Shown here: in pieces, positions 45,047 through 52,201 of the stretch
Layout of the letters: each line of letters opens with the position of its first letter
How positions within the stretch are numbered: position 1 is the stretch's first letter
Assembly: GCA_021323945.1 (NCBI GenBank)
Contig: JAJPKA010000020.1
Span: forward strand, 496,001 to 560,000
DNA from: Pseudomonadota bacterium
Lineage (GTDB): Bacteria > Desulfobacterota > Binatia > Binatales > Binataceae
Reading direction: 5' to 3'
DNA: 64,000 nucleotides
Position numbers and translations under genes: made by a program
Notes under the pieces: model-generated
Database searches by the model: none
Told to the model about the DNA's origin: nothing
Seen by the model: the letters and a program-made list of their open reading frames with translations, nothing else

Positions 45047-46477
45047 CTATTGGCCACTGCCATGCTGCTCAGGGTTGGCGCCCTTCGTTTCGGGCTTTTT
45101 AACGCCAAACTTGTCCAGGCGATATTGCAAGGTTCGATAGCTCATGCCAAGCATCTTGGCGGCCTTCGCAATCACCCAGTCTGCTTTTTCCATTGCCTGG
45201 TAAATAACGTCTCGTTCAAGATGCTCGAAATTAATACCCTCTGGTGGAAGTTCAAATCCTCCGCTGCCGCGCGCGCGTTCGGAGCGTCCTACGGTCTTGC
45301 GATCACGCACCTCTTGCGGCAGATCGCCGGGCATAATGCGATCGCCTTCGCATAACAGCAACGCCCGTTCGATAGCCGATTCCAGTTGCCGAACGTTACC
45401 CGGCCATGAGTAATCGAGCAACACCGCCATCGCCTCGCGGCTTATTTCTTTGACGCGGCCGTTGGCGAGATGAGCGAAACGAGCGAGCGCATGATTGGCG
45501 AGCAAGGGAATATCCGACCGCCGGTCGCGCAGCGGTGGCAAAGTGATGGTAACAACGTTGACCCGATAGAACAGATCCTCACGAAAGCGCCCTTCGGCTA
45601 CCTCTTCAGCGAGATTACGATTGGTTGCCGCGATCAGCCGGACATCGACTCTAATTGATTCATTACCGCCGACCCGACGTAGTTCGCGTTCCTGCAAAAC
45701 GCGGAGTAGTTTGGCCTGGACGCCTGCGCCCAAATCAGCGATTTCGTCGAGGAACAGCGTGGACTTGTCCGCGGTTTCGAACAGGCCAATCTTCCGTTCG
45801 GTGGCGCCGGTGAAGGCTCCTCGCTCGTGACCGAATAGCTCGTTTTCTATCAGGTTGTCGGGGATCGCCGAGCAATTGATCGCCACAAAGGGCCGCTGGG
45901 CACGGGGTGAGAGGCGGTGGATTGCGCGTGCTATGACTTCCTTGCCGGTGCCGCTTTCACCCTGTATGAGGACCGTCGAATTGGAGGGCGCGATCTTGCG
46001 GACGATCCGGATCATCTCGCGCATGGCGGGATCTTGACCGATAATCCCTTCGACGGCGAGCTTCCCTTCGACCTCGCTTCGCAGCAACAGATTTTCCTGT
46101 TTCTCGCGGGCGAGTTCGGCGGCCCGCGCCACAGTCATTACCAGTGGCTCGCGATCGACCGGCTTGGTCAAATAGTAAAATGCTCCCTGCTTGATTGCAT
46201 TGACCGCGCTGTCGATCGTGCCGAAGGCGGTTAGAACCACGACCTGAGTAGCGGGGTACTTCTCCTTGACCTTGACCAGCAGCTCTTCCCCTGAAATTCC
46301 CGGCATCATCAGGTCAGTCAGAACGACATCGAAACGGCTCGGACCAAGCAATTCCAAGGCACGCTTGCCGAGCGCGGCCTCTTCGACCCTAAACCCCTCT
46401 TCGCGCAGGGTCTCAGCCGTGATTTGTCGTTCGAGGTCGTTGTCCTCGACCACCAAAACCGAGGCTTGCTGCGTCAT
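45047..46477 (-). CDS. Sigma-54 response regulator, NtrC/ZraR type
   Basis: 476 residues: receiver with D55 (DVVLTDLMMPG), AAA+ domain with GESGTGKE and GAFTGA, Fis-type HTH (VIAKAAKMLGMSYRTLQYRLDKFGV) and a short charged tail. Its start overlaps the stop of the kinase gene at 46474 (ATGA), so kinase and regulator are coupled. It would activate sigma-54 promoters in response to an envelope or stress signal; targets are not visible. Confidence 0.94.
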   Translation of the reverse strand: MTQQASVLVVEDNDLERQITAETLREEGFRVEEAALGKRALELLGPSRFDVVLTDLMMPGISGEELLVKVKEKYPATQVVVLTAFGTIDSAVNAIKQGAFYYLTKPVDREPLVMTVARAAELAREKQENLLLRSEVEGKLAVEGIIGQDPAMREMIRIVRKIAPSNSTVLIQGESGTGKEVIARAIHRLSPRAQRPFVAINCSAIPDNLIENELFGHERGAFTGATERKIGLFETADKSTLFLDEIADLGAGVQAKLLRVLQERELRRVGGNESIRVDVRLIAATNRNLAEEVAEGRFREDLFYRVNVVTITLPPLRDRRSDIPLLANHALARFAHLANGRVKEISREAMAVLLDYSWPGNVRQLESAIERALLLCEGDRIMPGDLPQEVRDRKTVGRSERARGSGGFELPPEGINFEHLERDVIYQAMEKADWVIAKAAKMLGMSYRTLQYRLDKFGVKKPETKGANPEQHGSGQ

Positions 46478-47949
46478 ATGGATTTATGGATTCCCTCTGC
46501 TGGAAAAGTAAACGTTACGTTGGCGCCCGGCGGCGGGTCATTGGGGCTGATGGTCACCGTGCCGCCGTGTTTTTCCACAATGGCCTTGGAGAAGAACAAA
46601 CCCAGTCCGATTCCCTCGCGCTTGGTCGTATAGAAGGGTTCAAAGACATGAGCCGCGATTTCTGGGTCGATGCCCAGGCCGGTATCGGAAAATCGCACGA
46701 TAAAATGGCCATCATTGCGCGCAAATTCGATCTTCAGTCGCCCACCCTCCGGCATCGCCTGAGTGGCATTGGCGATGACGTTGATGAAACAGGTCCGTAC
46801 TTTCTCGGCATCGACGTTGAGGATGCTTTCGACCTGGGTGCCTTCCTCAATTACCTCAATTCCCTGGCTTTTGAGTTTCGACTCGCTTAGCGTCAGGACG
46901 CTGTTGACCAACTGTCGGAGATCCGTGGGAGCCGGAAAAATTTCGATGGGCTGGCCGTAATGAAGAAAGGTTTGCACCATTTCTGATAGCCGCTTGATCT
47001 CATCTTTCATCATCGCCAGTTGCCGCAGAAAATCCTCACGCCCGCGGCCGAGCTGCGGCCCGTAACGGGTGCGCAGCTGATCGACGGCTAGACTGATGAA
47101 GTTCAAAGGGTTCTTGATTTCGTGTGCCAACGCACCGGCGAGCTGGCCCAACGCGGTGAAGCGTTCGAGCCGGTTCAATTCCGCCTCGCGCTCGCGGGCC
47201 CGACGGAGCTGGGCTATCATTTCGTTGAAGCTGCGGGTCAGCAAGCCGATTTCGTCCCGGCGCCGCGATTCGGGCACCGGCTCGAGTCCATGCGAGGGGA
47301 TATTTTGAGCGGCGAAAGCGACCGTATGAATCGGCTTCACGTAGCGTTGCGCGAGCAGATAGGCAAAGACCAGACCGACCGCAAAAATACCGAGTCCGGT
47401 CATTACCAGCCAGAATTGATAAGCCTTTAAGGGCTGCTCAAAATCACCAAAATTGGCTAAGACCTGAACATAGCCAAGCAGATGATCTTCGACCTCGACC
47501 GGAATGAAGTAGACGGTACTTTGTGCTCCGGGTATGCCGAGTTTGGCGGCCGGAACGGCAATCGGCTCATTATGGGAGCCCCCTGCCCGAAGTGACATCA
47601 GCGTGCGGACTACCTCGGGATTGACCGCTTCACCGATCAACTTCGGATTGGAGCTGTTGATGATGAGATCCTTGTCCGAGGCGATGGACACCTCGAGGCC
47701 CTGCGTTTTGAGACGCGCGACGTAGTTCTGGAGGCGATCATGATCGGTTGCTTCAACCGATGTGAGCTCCTGAACGCTGATCTGGATCACACTTGCAAGA
47801 TCCTTGACCTTGCTCTGGGTGGTTCGGATGATGGCCTCTTCCGCGCTCAAACTGACGATTACTTCCGCCCCCAGTGTCAGCGTGAGCAGCACAACCATTA
47901 GCAGAATCAATTTGGCTTTTAAGTTAAGGGCGGGGAATGCGAATCGCAT
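46474..47949 (-). CDS. Membrane sensor histidine kinase (NtrB/ZraS-like)
   Basis: 491 residues: TM1 (~12-32), an extracytoplasmic dCache/sCache-like region of ~145 residues, TM2 (~180-205), HAMP, HisKA with ALAHEIKNPLNFI, and HATPase (NVIANATQAMPEGG, DTGLGIDPE, GIGLGLFFSKAIV). The H-E-I-K-N-P H-box is the type that pairs with NtrC regulators. Partner gene overlaps immediately downstream. Confidence 0.93.
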   Translation of the reverse strand: MRFAFPALNLKAKLILLMVVLLTLTLGAEVIVSLSAEEAIIRTTQSKVKDLASVIQISVQELTSVEATDHDRLQNYVARLKTQGLEVSIASDKDLIINSSNPKLIGEAVNPEVVRTLMSLRAGGSHNEPIAVPAAKLGIPGAQSTVYFIPVEVEDHLLGYVQVLANFGDFEQPLKAYQFWLVMTGLGIFAVGLVFAYLLAQRYVKPIHTVAFAAQNIPSHGLEPVPESRRRDEIGLLTRSFNEMIAQLRRAREREAELNRLERFTALGQLAGALAHEIKNPLNFISLAVDQLRTRYGPQLGRGREDFLRQLAMMKDEIKRLSEMVQTFLHYGQPIEIFPAPTDLRQLVNSVLTLSESKLKSQGIEVIEEGTQVESILNVDAEKVRTCFINVIANATQAMPEGGRLKIEFARNDGHFIVRFSDTGLGIDPEIAAHVFEPFYTTKREGIGLGLFFSKAIVEKHGGTVTISPNDPPPGANVTFTFPAEGIHKSI

Positions 47950-47989
47950 TGTCTCGATCGATTACGAGCCAAATAGTCCGGTGAGGGGT

Positions 47990-48601
47990 CTAGACGCTAT
48001 CAGCCTGTCGGCTATCAGTCCGCAGCAAGAACTGCGAGGCGTAAAAAATGATACAAACACTGATCGCTAACAAGACCAATCGGTCGAAGCCGCCAAGGTA
48101 AGAAATTGCCAGTTCGATTTGATCACCGAAAAAATACCCGATGGAAACGGCTATTGGTACTGAGAAGAGCGCGCCGAGTGCATCGTACATAACAAAGCGC
48201 TTGGGAGTCACCCCCGTGGAGCCTGCCAGAAGGTAAACGGGCGCACGAATTCCTGCTAAAAACCGCGCGTAAAAGATTGCCATGTGTCCATGACGCTCCA
48301 TGAAGCCTTTGAGCCGCTCGATGCGTGGCAACACGCGCGGACGCACAAAGCCAAGGTAGTGCAAGATGCGGGTTCCAAAACGACGACCGATAAAAAACAG
48401 CGAGTTGTCGCCCGCCACAACCCCGATGAAGGAGACTGCCAGAGTCGTCGGGTACTGGGTGATACCGCGATGAACTAAAAAGCCGCCTGTCAGCAAGGCA
48501 AGATCTTCAGGCACCGGCAAGCCCATCCCGCACAGAACCAGCACCAGGAGCAGCCCGAGGTAGGTGAAATGCTCAATATAGGTGGAGACCAGTCCCGTCA
48601 A
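47990..48601 (-). CDS. DedA-family membrane protein
   Basis: 203 residues from TTG at 48601, three bases after the stop of the CYCXC gene; the frame is open to 48742 but that part lies inside the upstream gene. Hallmarks: CGMGLPVPEDLALLTGGFLVHRG, GVVAGDNSLFFIGRRFG, F.ARFLAGIRAPVYLLAGSTG. Likely lipid-carrier transport or envelope maintenance. Transcribed with the CYCXC gene and ahead of the two-component genes on the same strand. Confidence 0.86.
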   Translation of the reverse strand: MTGLVSTYIEHFTYLGLLLVLVLCGMGLPVPEDLALLTGGFLVHRGITQYPTTLAVSFIGVVAGDNSLFFIGRRFGTRILHYLGFVRPRVLPRIERLKGFMERHGHMAIFYARFLAGIRAPVYLLAGSTGVTPKRFVMYDALGALFSVPIAVSIGYFFGDQIELAISYLGGFDRLVLLAISVCIIFYASQFLLRTDSRQADSV

Positions 48602-48603
48602 AA

Positions 48604-49002
48604 CTAGCCCCCGTTCGCATAGCGTTGATGCAGAATTGCACGAATCTGCTCGGGAGGAGTGCCGTTTTCGTACAGCTGACCAGCGGTTATCGCTTCGCCG
48701 GTACACGTCGCGCAGGTCGCGCCGTGGTTGGTTCGAAAACAATCGAGTAAGCTTTTGTGGCCCTCGTGTCGCTCACAACCACAGTAACAATCGAGCTGAG
48801 CTAACAAGTCTGGGTGTCGCTGGGCGACCAGGTAGGCAGCGTGAGTTTCACCTTCAAACAGATCCGGATTGAGTGTAAGCCCATTAGTAGCGGCGACCGC
48901 AAACGAATGCAGCTGATAGACGGCGGCTGCGGCCAGGCCCAGCAGACCAACCACCACGAGCGCGGCTACCATCCTGCTGGCGCTGTTAGATTTGGTGCTC
49001 AT
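48604..49002 (-). CDS. CYCXC-motif (PCYCGC-family) exported protein
   Basis: 132 residues: N-terminal membrane anchor (~11-30), then C72-x-C74-x-C76 in LDCYCGCERHEGH, C88 in LLDCF, and C97/C100 in TCATC. This is the PCYCGC/CYCXC domain, in which some homologues contain selenocysteine; all positions here are Cys. The conserved Cys/His set suggests metal or redox chemistry in the periplasm; function unknown. Followed by DedA in the same operon. Confidence 0.87.
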   Translation of the reverse strand: MSTKSNSASRMVAALVVVGLLGLAAAAVYQLHSFAVAATNGLTLNPDLFEGETHAAYLVAQRHPDLLAQLDCYCGCERHEGHKSLLDCFRTNHGATCATCTGEAITAGQLYENGTPPEQIRAILHQRYANGG

Positions 49003-49057
49003 CTTATGGCAGTCACCCTGAAGGCTTCTTGTGGCGCTCGAGCCCTTCTGCCCAACA

Positions 49058-49819
49058 CTATAGCATCTCGACGACCTGTAAGCTTCGCCGTCGAAACGAA
49101 TAAAGGGCAGCCGGCCGATGTCTTCCGCGGCGCTTAAACGGGAGTCGGATCAACAAATTCATCGCTAGAATTCGACGACGAAAATTGCGTCGATCAAGCG
49201 GACGGCCCAGCACAATTCCATACAGCTCTTCAAGCTGTGCAAAACTGAACGTAACAGGCAATAGATGGCATGCGATATTGGTATATTCAAGTTTCGACTT
49301 TAAGCGCTGCACTGCATATCTGGCAATCTCGGCATGATCATAGGCCAGCTCCGGCAGTGCCCCCACCTCAAACCATGCGCCATTCGCATACTTTGCCGAA
49401 CATGATTGCACCGCAGAGGTTCGGTCGATCAATGCCATGTAAGCCACGGAAACCACATGGGCCTTGGGATCGCGATGCGGGTCACCGAAGCTGAAAAGCT
49501 GTTCGATGTAGCACTGATCAAGTCCGGTCGACTCGCGCAGCTCACGTCGAGCGGCTTCGTCAAGCATTTCGCCTTCGCGGACCAATCCCCCCGGAAAAGC
49601 CCATTTGCCGGCCGATGGTCCGCGCCTGAGGCGGACCAGGTAGCACTTCACCCGCCCCGAATCGACTGCAAACAGCACCGTGTCAACTGCCACCTTAGGC
49701 CGTGCGTGGCGCCGCACTGGTGCCATCCGGGGTCGGACCAGGGAACCGGACGACGCGCGGAAGTTCTGAACTGGTTCCAGGCTGCGGGAAACTGACACCC
49801 TACCCTGATGAGGGCTCAC
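49058..49819 (-). CDS. nrtR: NrtR-like Nudix/winged-helix regulator of NAD metabolism
   Basis: Up to 253 residues: N-terminal Nudix domain (PKVAVDTVLFAVDSGRVKCYLVRL; GPSAGKWAFPGGLVREGE) and C-terminal winged helix (VTFSFAQLEELYGIVLGRPLDRRNFRRRIL). The Nudix box reads RELRESTGL where REUxEExGU is expected, so one metal-binding Glu is Ser; loss of catalysis is typical of NrtR repressors that sense ADP-ribose. GTG at 49819 overlaps the nadA stop (GTGA); ATG at 49726 is an alternative. Adjacent nadA fits regulation of NAD synthesis. Confidence 0.82.
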   Translation of the reverse strand: MSPHQGRVSVSRSLEPVQNFRASSGSLVRPRMAPVRRHARPKVAVDTVLFAVDSGRVKCYLVRLRRGPSAGKWAFPGGLVREGEMLDEAARRELRESTGLDQCYIEQLFSFGDPHRDPKAHVVSVAYMALIDRTSAVQSCSAKYANGAWFEVGALPELAYDHAEIARYAVQRLKSKLEYTNIACHLLPVTFSFAQLEELYGIVLGRPLDRRNFRRRILAMNLLIRLPFKRRGRHRPAALYSFRRRSLQVVEML

Positions 49820-50823
49820 GCGCCAAGATCTAACATGCGATCCAACGCCCGCCGGGCTCCCTGGCGCACTTCCTCGGACATTGTGATCTCATATCTGAGG
49901 TTTGTCAGGGCGTCGCGTACCCCAGCTAGCGTGATCATTTTCATGTATCGACACAGCTTACATGCCTTGTAGAAATGCTTTCCGGGTATTTCCATCAGCA
50001 GGCGATCAGATAAACCGCACTCTGTCACAATCAGAAATTTGTCAGCGTTGCTCTCGCGCGCGTATCGTATCATGGCGCTAGTCGACAGAACCGCGTCCGC
50101 CATTGCGATTACGTCCTTGCGGCATTCGGGATGCGCAATGACGACGAGGCCCGGGATGCCCGCCTTCGCCCGTTCTACCTCGGCCGGAGTTATCTGATGA
50201 TGAACATAGCAATTACCATCCCATGAAATTATGTTCTTGCTAGTCTGCCCCTGTACGTAACTGGCCAGATTTTGATCGGGGACAAACAAGATATTGTCGG
50301 CTTCCAGGCGATTCACGACTTTGACGGCGTTGGCCGAAGTGCAGCACGCATCAGAGAGGGCTTTAACGTCAGCTGTGCAGTTGACGTAGGAAACCACCTG
50401 CAGGTCGGGGTAGATTTCGCGCAGCTCCTGAACCCGCTCGGCCAAGGCCTCGGCTGTCACCGAATCCGCCAGCGAGCAGCCCGCTCGCAAATCCGGCAGC
50501 AGCACCATCCGCTCCGGATTGAATACCTTGGCGGTCTCGGCCATAAAATGAACGCCGCAGAACACGATAATCTCAGCGTCTTCTACGTCGCGGGCCTTGC
50601 GGGCGAGTTCGAAGGAATCGCCGATGAAGTCCGCCACTTCGAAGATTTCGGGGCGCTGATAATTGTGGGCGAGCACGATTGCGCTTCGTTGCGCCTTCAA
50701 CTTCAAAATTTCATCAATCAGCGTTGCATACTGCTCGCAAAGTTCGGGAGTGTAGGTTGGGTCATGTAAACTGACGAGCTTGGCATGCAGCTCGTTGCCA
50801 GTGATTTTCGTCTGGGTGATCAT
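49816..50823 (-). CDS. nadA: Quinolinate synthase A
   Basis: 335-residue [4Fe-4S] enzyme that condenses iminoaspartate with dihydroxyacetone phosphate to quinolinate for NAD synthesis. Conserved segments: AIVLAHNYQRPEIFEVADFIGDSFELA, FCGVHFMAETAKV, DLRAGCSLADS, NCTADVKALSDACCTSANAV, HPECRKDV, CKLCRYMKMITL; cluster Cys candidates lie in these. Overlaps the nrtR-like gene; nadB and nadC are not in the window. Confidence 0.96.
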   Translation of the reverse strand: MITQTKITGNELHAKLVSLHDPTYTPELCEQYATLIDEILKLKAQRSAIVLAHNYQRPEIFEVADFIGDSFELARKARDVEDAEIIVFCGVHFMAETAKVFNPERMVLLPDLRAGCSLADSVTAEALAERVQELREIYPDLQVVSYVNCTADVKALSDACCTSANAVKVVNRLEADNILFVPDQNLASYVQGQTSKNIISWDGNCYVHHQITPAEVERAKAGIPGLVVIAHPECRKDVIAMADAVLSTSAMIRYARESNADKFLIVTECGLSDRLLMEIPGKHFYKACKLCRYMKMITLAGVRDALTNLRYEITMSEEVRQGARRALDRMLDLGA

Positions 50824-50923
50824 AAACTGCTTCCTCGCAAGACGTCTGATGTAGCGGTGTTGAGCGCGGTGGTAACGTGGCTTGCAGCTCGGGTTTGCGT
50901 CAATTTGACACTTACCTTAGCAA

Positions 50924-50943
50924 TTGTTACAGACGTGTGACAA
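50924..50943. promoter_or_regulatory. 20-bp palindrome upstream of nadA, candidate NrtR operator
   Basis: TTGTTACA-GACG-TGTGACAA: arms match at 7 of 8 positions. It lies ~100 bases before nadA in the 229-base divergent region, where the nadA-nrtR promoter must be. Known NrtR operators are ~20-21-bp palindromes of lineage-specific sequence. The same site could also affect the divergent acyl-CoA dehydrogenase. Confidence 0.5.
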
Positions 50944-51052
50944 CAGTTCGTCAATTGCTATCGCAAGACCGCGGAGCCGCCTTCCCAATTGTCGGGTTCG
51001 CGCAGATTAGATACGTGTCGGGCGACAGCCACGTCAGGGGAGAGTGAAGCAA

Positions 51053-52201
51053 ATGGATGAATCGTTGGACCGCGAGATTGTCGAGACTGTTCGCCGATTT
51101 GTCGACCGCGAGGTAATTCCGGTAGCCAGTGAGCTCGAGCATAAGGACGAGTACCCGCACGGGCTGGTGGCGAAGATGAAGGAACTTGGCCTGTTCGGCG
51201 CCACCATTCCTCAGGCCTATGGCGGTCTCGGCTTGAGCTTCCTCAGTTACGCGCATTTGATGAGCGAACTCTCGCGCGGCTGGATGAGTCTGGCGGGTGT
51301 CATCAACAGCCATTTAATCATGGCCTACCTGATCAGCAATTATGGCACCGAAGAACAGAAGCACCGCTTTCTTCCCGCCATGGCGACCGGCGAGAAAAGA
51401 GGCGGACTGGCGCTCACCGAACCACACGCCGGCAGTGATGTCCAATCAATTCGGACCACCGCAGTGCGCGACGGCGACTATTATCTCATCTCAGGAACCA
51501 AGATGTTCATTACCAACGCTCGCTACGGCACGATGCTGGCGGTCGCGGCCAAGACCAACCCTCACGCTCAGCCTGCCTATTTGGGAATCAGCATGTTAGC
51601 GGTCGAGAAAAATGAGCGTGGCCCCACAGTGAGCCGCCAGCTCAAGAAACTCGGTTACAAAGGACTGGACACGTGCGAAGTCCTCTTCGAGGAGCTTCCA
51701 GTTCCGGCAGCCAATCTGATCGGCAGTCGCGAAGGCGAAGGGTTCAAACAGGTGATGAGTGCGCTTGAAGTCGGGCGCATCAACGTAGCGGCCCGAGCGG
51801 TCGGCGTTGGTCAGGCCGCGTTCGATAGTGCGATCCGTTATGCGCAGCAGCGGACGGCCTTCGGCAAGCCGATCGCGCAGCATCAGGCGGTGCAGTTATT
51901 ACTCGCGGATATGGGAACGCGGCTTCAGGCGGCCAAACTACTGGTAGATAATGCGGCCCGAAAAAAGGATGCAGGAGAACGCTGCGACGTCGAGGCCGGC
52001 ATGGCTAAACTGTTCGCCTCCGAGGCGTGTGCCAAAATGACGCTGGATGCCATGCGGGTGCTGGGCGGCTATGGTTATATGGCCGAATTCCCAGTGGAAC
52101 GGTTTTATCGTGACGCGCCACTTATGATGATCGGCGAAGGTACGAACGAGATCCAGGCGCTCGTGATTGCCCGCGGGTTGTTGGCTCGCAATCCACTTTG
52201 A
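51053..52201 (+). CDS. Acyl-CoA dehydrogenase (short-chain type)
   Basis: 382-residue flavoprotein. ALTEPHAGSDVQSIRTTA, GTKMFITNARYGTMLAV, RTAFGKPIAQHQAVQ, RVLGGYGYMAEFPVERFYRDA and the catalytic Glu in GEGTNEIQ are all present, so it should be active, unlike the subunit at 14991. ATG at 51053 with AGGGGAGAG is preferred to the GTG three codons upstream. Divergent from nadA. Substrate unknown. Confidence 0.93.
   Translation: MDESLDREIVETVRRFVDREVIPVASELEHKDEYPHGLVAKMKELGLFGATIPQAYGGLGLSFLSYAHLMSELSRGWMSLAGVINSHLIMAYLISNYGTEEQKHRFLPAMATGEKRGGLALTEPHAGSDVQSIRTTAVRDGDYYLISGTKMFITNARYGTMLAVAAKTNPHAQPAYLGISMLAVEKNERGPTVSRQLKKLGYKGLDTCEVLFEELPVPAANLIGSREGEGFKQVMSALEVGRINVAARAVGVGQAAFDSAIRYAQQRTAFGKPIAQHQAVQLLLADMGTRLQAAKLLVDNAARKKDAGERCDVEAGMAKLFASEACAKMTLDAMRVLGGYGYMAEFPVERFYRDAPLMMIGEGTNEIQALVIARGLLARNPL

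What the first reader, a model, noticed from the sequence alone, without database searches (positions are those of the whole stretch)
49058..51052. nadA-nrtR unit with a degenerate Nudix box and a 20-bp palindromic operator candidate
The Nudix-winged helix protein overlaps nadA, has lost one catalytic Glu (RELRESTGL), and the divergent upstream region carries TTGTTACA-N4-TGTGACAA. Together this predicts a self-controlled NAD-synthesis repressor with a specific site.
Basis: partly seen in the sequence, partly recalled or inferred. Interest (0 to 1): 0.55.

Follow-up and report, generated by a model that had tools for sequence, protein, structure and literature searches.

The report
NAD-synthesis repressor gene with corrected operator
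A bacterium's NAD-making gene nadA sits next to a switch protein of the known NrtR family, but the DNA site that the switch most likely grips is a conserved palindrome beside the one first proposed, which looks like a chance palindrome overlapping the promoter.

Summary
The genes are real: nadA (49816-50823, -) followed by an NrtR-family regulator (conserved part 49061 to about 49726, -) with a degenerate Nudix box, in a relative of Candidatus Binataceae. One arm (TTGTCA) is probably the nadA -35 box. The likely operator lies 9 bases nearer nadA: TAAGTGTCAAATTGACGCAAA (50894-50914, - strand; wider form TWWGYGT-N7-ACRCWWA). It is in 45 of 47 nadA-nrtR loci (both misses are cut by contig ends) and in 0 of 8 nadA loci of genomes where no full-length NrtR was found. 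Copies sit at nadB in one relative and before valS-nadC in another. Its core has the geometry of the GTGT-N7-ACAC site in the published BtAraR crystal, and the base-contacting residues are kept or conservatively changed. Steric repression of nadA and nrtR is the best reading. ADP-ribose as ligand is open: a phosphate-binding arginine is Leu here. New member of a known kind.

The parts
49816..50823 (-). nadA, quinolinate synthase
   Evidence: Pfam NadA 389.5 bits; NCBIfam PRK09375.1-2 398.6 bits over cut-off 294
   Evidence: NrtR_WHD and NUDIX; Foldseek matches to BtAraR 5bs6 and SoNrtR 3gz6; N-terminus not conserved
50894..50914 (-). proposed NrtR operator TAAGTGTCAAATTGACGCAAA (core GTGT-N7-ACGC), 71 to 91 bases upstream of the first base of the nadA start codon
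50914..50919 (-). candidate -10 box TAAGGT; its last T is the first base of the operator
   Evidence: T, A and T of TANNNT at this place in 19, 15 and 24 of 27 aligned upstreams, TATTGT in the genus-mate; inferred, and not reported by the consensus scan
   Evidence: TTGTCA-N18-TANNNT shared with the genus-mate, while the rest of the palindrome is not; inferred
51053..52201 (+). divergent acyl-CoA dehydrogenase gene, probably not part of the regulon
   Evidence: Pfam Acyl-CoA_dh domains; its distance from nadA varies in relatives while the operator keeps to nadA

Best explanation
nadA-nrtR is an autoregulated NAD-synthesis unit. A dimer of the Nudix-fold, winged-helix regulator binds the 21-bp palindrome TAAGTGTCAAATTGACGCAAA at 50894-50914, which overlaps the -10 box and probable start of the nadA promoter, and blocks transcription of nadA and of nrtR. 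A ligand in the catalytically degraded Nudix pocket, probably a NAD-related metabolite, moves the winged helices and releases the DNA. Shown by sequence comparison: domain make-up, degenerate Nudix box, operator conservation, its absence where NrtR was not found, and sites at other NAD genes in two relatives. Inferred: promoter boxes, co-transcription of nrtR, repression, and the nature of the ligand.
For: Family and fold. Operator: 27 of 28 nadA upstreams in the first set, own included (the 28th, L008, ends 100 bases upstream); 25 of 27 relatives beat the best of 100 resamplings of their own upstream (the motif had been picked from this same set). Over the class, 45 of 47 loci with nadA and nrtR carry the wider form at 12 or more of 14 (L008 and L155 are cut by contig ends). 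Of these, 12 loci (fetched, after the form was fixed) are new: 11 of 12 carry it. Control: 8 of 8 nadA loci with nrtR against 0 of 8 nadA loci in genomes where only partial Nudix matches or none were found. In G014 nrtR is missing from the otherwise kept gene order, and so is the operator. Other targets: exact site at nadB in G029; one-mismatch site before valS-nadC in G003. The only exact site of the own genome is this one. Structure: BtAraR contacts GTGT-N7-ACAC through Lys179, Arg180, Asn181, Lys184 and the wing's Lys204 and Arg205 (PMC4666351, section 15 read whole); the aligned residues here are Arg, Arg, Asn, Arg, His, Arg. Residue 184 tracks the inner base pair: Lys with A..T in 8 of 8 loci, Arg with C:G on at least one side in 37 of 37.
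Against: No binding or expression data. SoNrtR's ADP-ribose phosphate contact Arg41 (BtAraR Arg34) is Leu in 26 of 30 proteins, and the Arg98 position varies, so the known ligand is not assured. The NCBIfam NrtR equivalog model scores 137 bits against a cut-off of 400. No site lies before nadB or valS-nadC in the own genome. Two-mismatch matches in the own genome are at or near noise level (22 and 16 against 34 and 34 for the control pattern; 9 and 12 against 4 and 7). The consensus promoter scan did not report the proposed promoter. The distant relative L031 did not beat its resamplings with the family's 18-mer.
Confidence: 0.87

Rival explanations
1. The first reader's palindrome TTGTTACA-N4-TGTGACAA at 50924-50943 is the NrtR operator.
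For: It is a real 7-of-8 palindrome in the nadA upstream region, with no second copy in the genome at up to 2 mismatches.
Against: Found in 0 of 27 relatives (best 11 of 16, never above the best resampling), not in the genus-mate's nadA upstream, at chance frequency as a palindrome, and without the GYGT-N7-ACRC geometry of BtAraR's solved operator.
Confidence: 0.03
2. The conserved palindrome is the site of another regulator or a promoter part, not of NrtR.
For: It overlaps the proposed -10 box, and conservation alone does not name the binder.
Against: It was not found before nadA in 8 of 8 genomes without a full-length NrtR match, matches the operator geometry of the NrtR-family protein BtAraR, and its inner base follows a base-contacting residue of NrtR.
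Confidence: 0.07
3. The protein is an AraR-like sugar-responsive regulator that only happens to sit beside nadA.
For: Its best solved relative by sequence and fold is BtAraR.
Against: The neighbour gene and the extra sites point to NAD synthesis; the arabinose-binding Arg34 is Leu.
Confidence: 0.03

Closest known systems
NrtR (Nudix-related transcriptional regulator of NAD metabolism; Shewanella SoNrtR, M. smegmatis MsNrtR)
   Same: Nudix-like domain plus winged helix, degenerate Nudix box, next to a de novo NAD gene, palindromic site upstream
   Different: Operator TWWGYGT-N7-ACRCWWA differs from the mycobacterial GTTTTCGA-N7-TCGAAAAC and the streptococcal site (PMC6800001, passages); Arg41 of the ADP-ribose pocket replaced by Leu
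BtAraR (NrtR-family arabinose regulator)
   Same: Closest solved structure (36% identity in the Foldseek match); same operator core spacing, GTGT-N7-ACAC; shared recognition-helix pattern
   Different: Controls arabinose genes and binds L-arabinose through Arg34 (PMC4666351), which is Leu here
NadQ
   Same: Related winged helix (phmmer 3.3e-9); controls nadABC; palindrome ttATRCTCannntGAGYATaa with a 3-base spacer (PMC5343134, passages)
   Different: Different N-terminal effector domain and half-site

Membership tests
NrtR | N-terminal Nudix-like domain and C-terminal NrtR winged helix | tested here: met
NrtR | Degenerate Nudix catalytic motif | tested here: met
   second Glu of EE absent in 30 of 30 proteins of L002-L031; first Glu kept in 3 of 30, the window protein among them
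NrtR | Linked to, and with predicted sites before, NAD-metabolism genes | tested here: met
NrtR | Score over NCBI's curated equivalog cut-off for NrtR | tested here: not met
   137 of 400 bits; this is one narrow model, and Pfam's NrtR winged-helix model passes (73.2 over 27)
NrtR | ADP-ribose (or NAD) as ligand | tested here: inconclusive
   Arg41-equivalent is Leu in 26 of 30, Arg98-equivalent variable, Lys in the window protein; ligand binding itself not testable here
NrtR | Repression of target genes | not testable with these tools
   needs expression data
AraR branch | Arabinose-binding Arg34, Arg86, His131 | tested here: not met
   Arg86 and His131 kept, Arg34 lost
NadQ | NadQ N-terminal domain instead of Nudix | tested here: not met
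   N-terminal domain is Nudix

The most novel reading that the evidence does not exclude
In this class the NrtR recognition-helix residue aligned with BtAraR Lys184 acts as a specificity switch that reads the inner base pair of the operator (Lys: GYGTA; Arg: GYGTC), and the regulator answers to a ligand other than ADP-ribose because the phosphate-binding Arg41 has become Leu.
Probability: 0.3. Interest if true: 0.5.

Novelty: new member of a known kind. Interest (0 to 1): 0.33.

Why it matters
It gives a group known here from metagenome-assembled genomes a testable NAD regulon with an exact operator, corrects a plausible but wrong site, and offers natural losses (nrtR without nadA, nadA without nrtR) and a residue-base correlation that tie regulator to site. 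The possible change of ligand is the part most likely to surprise a specialist.

Tried and rejected
A wider regulon in the own genome was looked for: no second strong site. The palindrome at G000:C14:101738 (GCGTCACAATGACGC) lacks the A/T flanks and overlaps the start of an open frame that I did not search by family; it was not counted. G023:C281 (1 mismatch) has no NAD gene that I recognised by reading the translations beside it (no family search) and was not counted. In G008 a 2-mismatch site lies at the start codon of a gene that matches only the N-terminal half of an NAD-synthase model, below the cut-off (150 of 479 bits): suggestive only. Of the 30 loci returned by the family-wide pattern search, 6 (L078, L093, L097, L099, L100, L101) hold no nadA or nrtR; L078 is the valS-nadC site and L097 the G008 site, the other four are 2-mismatch matches not followed. 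L036-L040 (L118 is the contig of L040) are NrtR-like proteins with no nadA match in the locus and no site of this form found. The residue-184 correlation rests on few separate lineages (Lys type in families f6, f9 and f11), so shared descent may explain part of it. Rodionov et al. 2008, the founding NrtR paper, is not held and was not read. No paper on a Binatota NrtR operator turned up in the searches made (listings), which cover this library only.

In one search, four repeats (L146, L151, L153, L156) and three loci without nadA in reach (L020, L029, L144). L127 is the locus of L031.

Full report
Setting. The window lies in a 3.74-Mb genome in 22 contigs. Of 18 named records with a relative of its NrtR, the two closest are titled Candidatus Binataceae, so the source is probably of that family; the phylum name Binatota is recalled. 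On the minus strand lie nadA, nrtR, a CYCXC-family gene, a DedA-type gene and a sensor kinase; an acyl-CoA dehydrogenase gene diverges at 51053.

The protein. The regulator has a NUDIX domain and an NrtR winged helix. BtAraR and SoNrtR are its best solved relatives by sequence and by predicted fold (mean pLDDT 81.7; Foldseek E 5.9e-22 and 2.5e-19). The Nudix box is degenerate: the second Glu of the EE pair is absent in 30 of 30 proteins of L002-L031 (Ser 19, Ala 8, Thr 2, Lys 1) and the first is Glu in only 3 of 30. PMC4666351 (passages) says the motif is impaired in NrtR regulators, several of which are inactive enzymes, so this feature is typical of the family.

The proposed palindrome. It is in the DNA, but 8-N4-8 palindromes of this quality occur 34 times in the window against 33.4 expected. 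Before nadA it was found in 0 of 27 relatives (L008 has only 100 bases upstream). In the genus-mate only TTGTCA of it is kept, 18 bases before a TANNNT hexamer as in the window. I read these as the -35 and -10 boxes of nadA; a consensus scan did not report them, so this is an inference. At up to 2 mismatches the palindrome has no second place in the own genome.

The operator. The upstreams of 28 nadA genes, own included, share TAAGYGTCA-N3-TGACGCAAA or a close form in 27; the exception L008 ends 100 bases upstream, and what looks like half of the site stands at its edge. Without the own sequence, 25 of 27 relatives exceed the best of 100 resamplings of their upstream; L008 and the distant L031 do not. 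The motif was picked from this same set, so that test is not independent. The wider form TWWGYGT-N7-ACRCWWA was fixed on the class loci and then met in 11 of 12 newly fetched loci; over all, 45 of 47 nadA-nrtR loci have it at 12 or more of 14, and L008 and L155 are cut by contig ends. Control: 8 of 8 nadA loci with nrtR beside them score 12-14 of 14; 0 of 8 from genomes with only partial Nudix matches, or none, reach 12 (highest 11). In G014 the order nadA - CYCXC gene - DedA - kinase is kept without nrtR and without the operator; in G008 nrtR is kept and no nadA was found.

The regulon. In the own genome the only exact site is before nadA; two-mismatch matches are no more than the control pattern gives (22 and 16 against 34 and 34) and about twice the control (9 and 12 against 4 and 7). 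nadB and valS-nadC exist and have no site. Among 41 family genomes, 36 have a match at up to 2 mismatches, not all at nadA; the reversed control pattern gave 0 or 1 per strand and genome. Beyond nadA, an exact site lies at the start of nadB in G029 (about 18 bases before its ATG; an earlier TTG lies inside the site) and a 1-mismatch site lies about 100 bases before valS-nadC in G003. A 2-mismatch site in G008 lies at the start of an NAD-synthase-like amidase gene (weak). A 1-mismatch site in G023 has no recognised NAD gene beside it.

Structure link. [quoted passage not shown] The operator here has GTGT-N7-ACGC with A/T flanks, and the aligned residues are Arg, Arg, Asn, Arg, His, Arg. Over the 45 loci with a site, residue 184 is Lys in 8, all with A..T as the inner pair, and Arg in 37, all with C:G on at least one side: C..G 27, C..T 8, C..A 1, A..G 1. 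Relatedness is not corrected for.

Mechanism. The 21-bp site begins at the last base of the candidate -10 box and would cover the start point, so a bound dimer should block RNA polymerase at nadA and, if the two genes are one transcript, at nrtR. The ligand is open. ADP-ribose suppresses DNA binding by the Shewanella and Synechocystis proteins, while NdnR answers to NAD (PMC4666351, passages). The Arg that contacts the ADP-ribose phosphate in SoNrtR (Arg41, equivalent to BtAraR Arg34) is Leu in 26 of 30 proteins here, Ile in 2 and Pro in 2; the Arg98 position is Arg in 14 of 30 and otherwise mixed, Lys in the window protein.

Verdict. An ordinary NrtR-type NAD regulator in a group for which the searches made found no described NrtR site (listings). 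The gene reading is right, the proposed site is wrong, and the likely site is 9 bases away.

Noticed in passing
46474-50823: Gene order nadA - nrtR - CYCXC-family (seleno)protein - DedA - sensor kinase is kept in several relatives, also where nrtR (G014) or nadA (G008) was not found.
   Followed up: partly
L036-L040 (L118 is the contig of L040): NrtR-like proteins, 51-52% identical, with no nadA match in the locus; in L037 and L118 the neighbours look like a metal-dependent hydrolase and an ABC-transporter ATPase (from reading the translations, no family search). Target unknown.
   Followed up: no
L041 3001-3645: NrtR relative in a Bernardetia record with an intact-looking Nudix box (RELEEETG), so possibly an active enzyme; a similar imperfect palindrome TTAGTGTTTTTTGTACACAAA lies just upstream on the minus strand.
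   Followed up: no
L113 441-4081: valS-nadC gene pair with an operator-like site before valS in G003, which would put a tRNA synthetase gene under NAD control; the own genome has valS next to nadC too, without the site.
   Followed up: partly
L112 3946-3966: Operator-like site (2 mismatches) at the start codon of an NAD-synthase-like amidase gene in G008, the family member with nrtR but no nadA found.
   Followed up: partly
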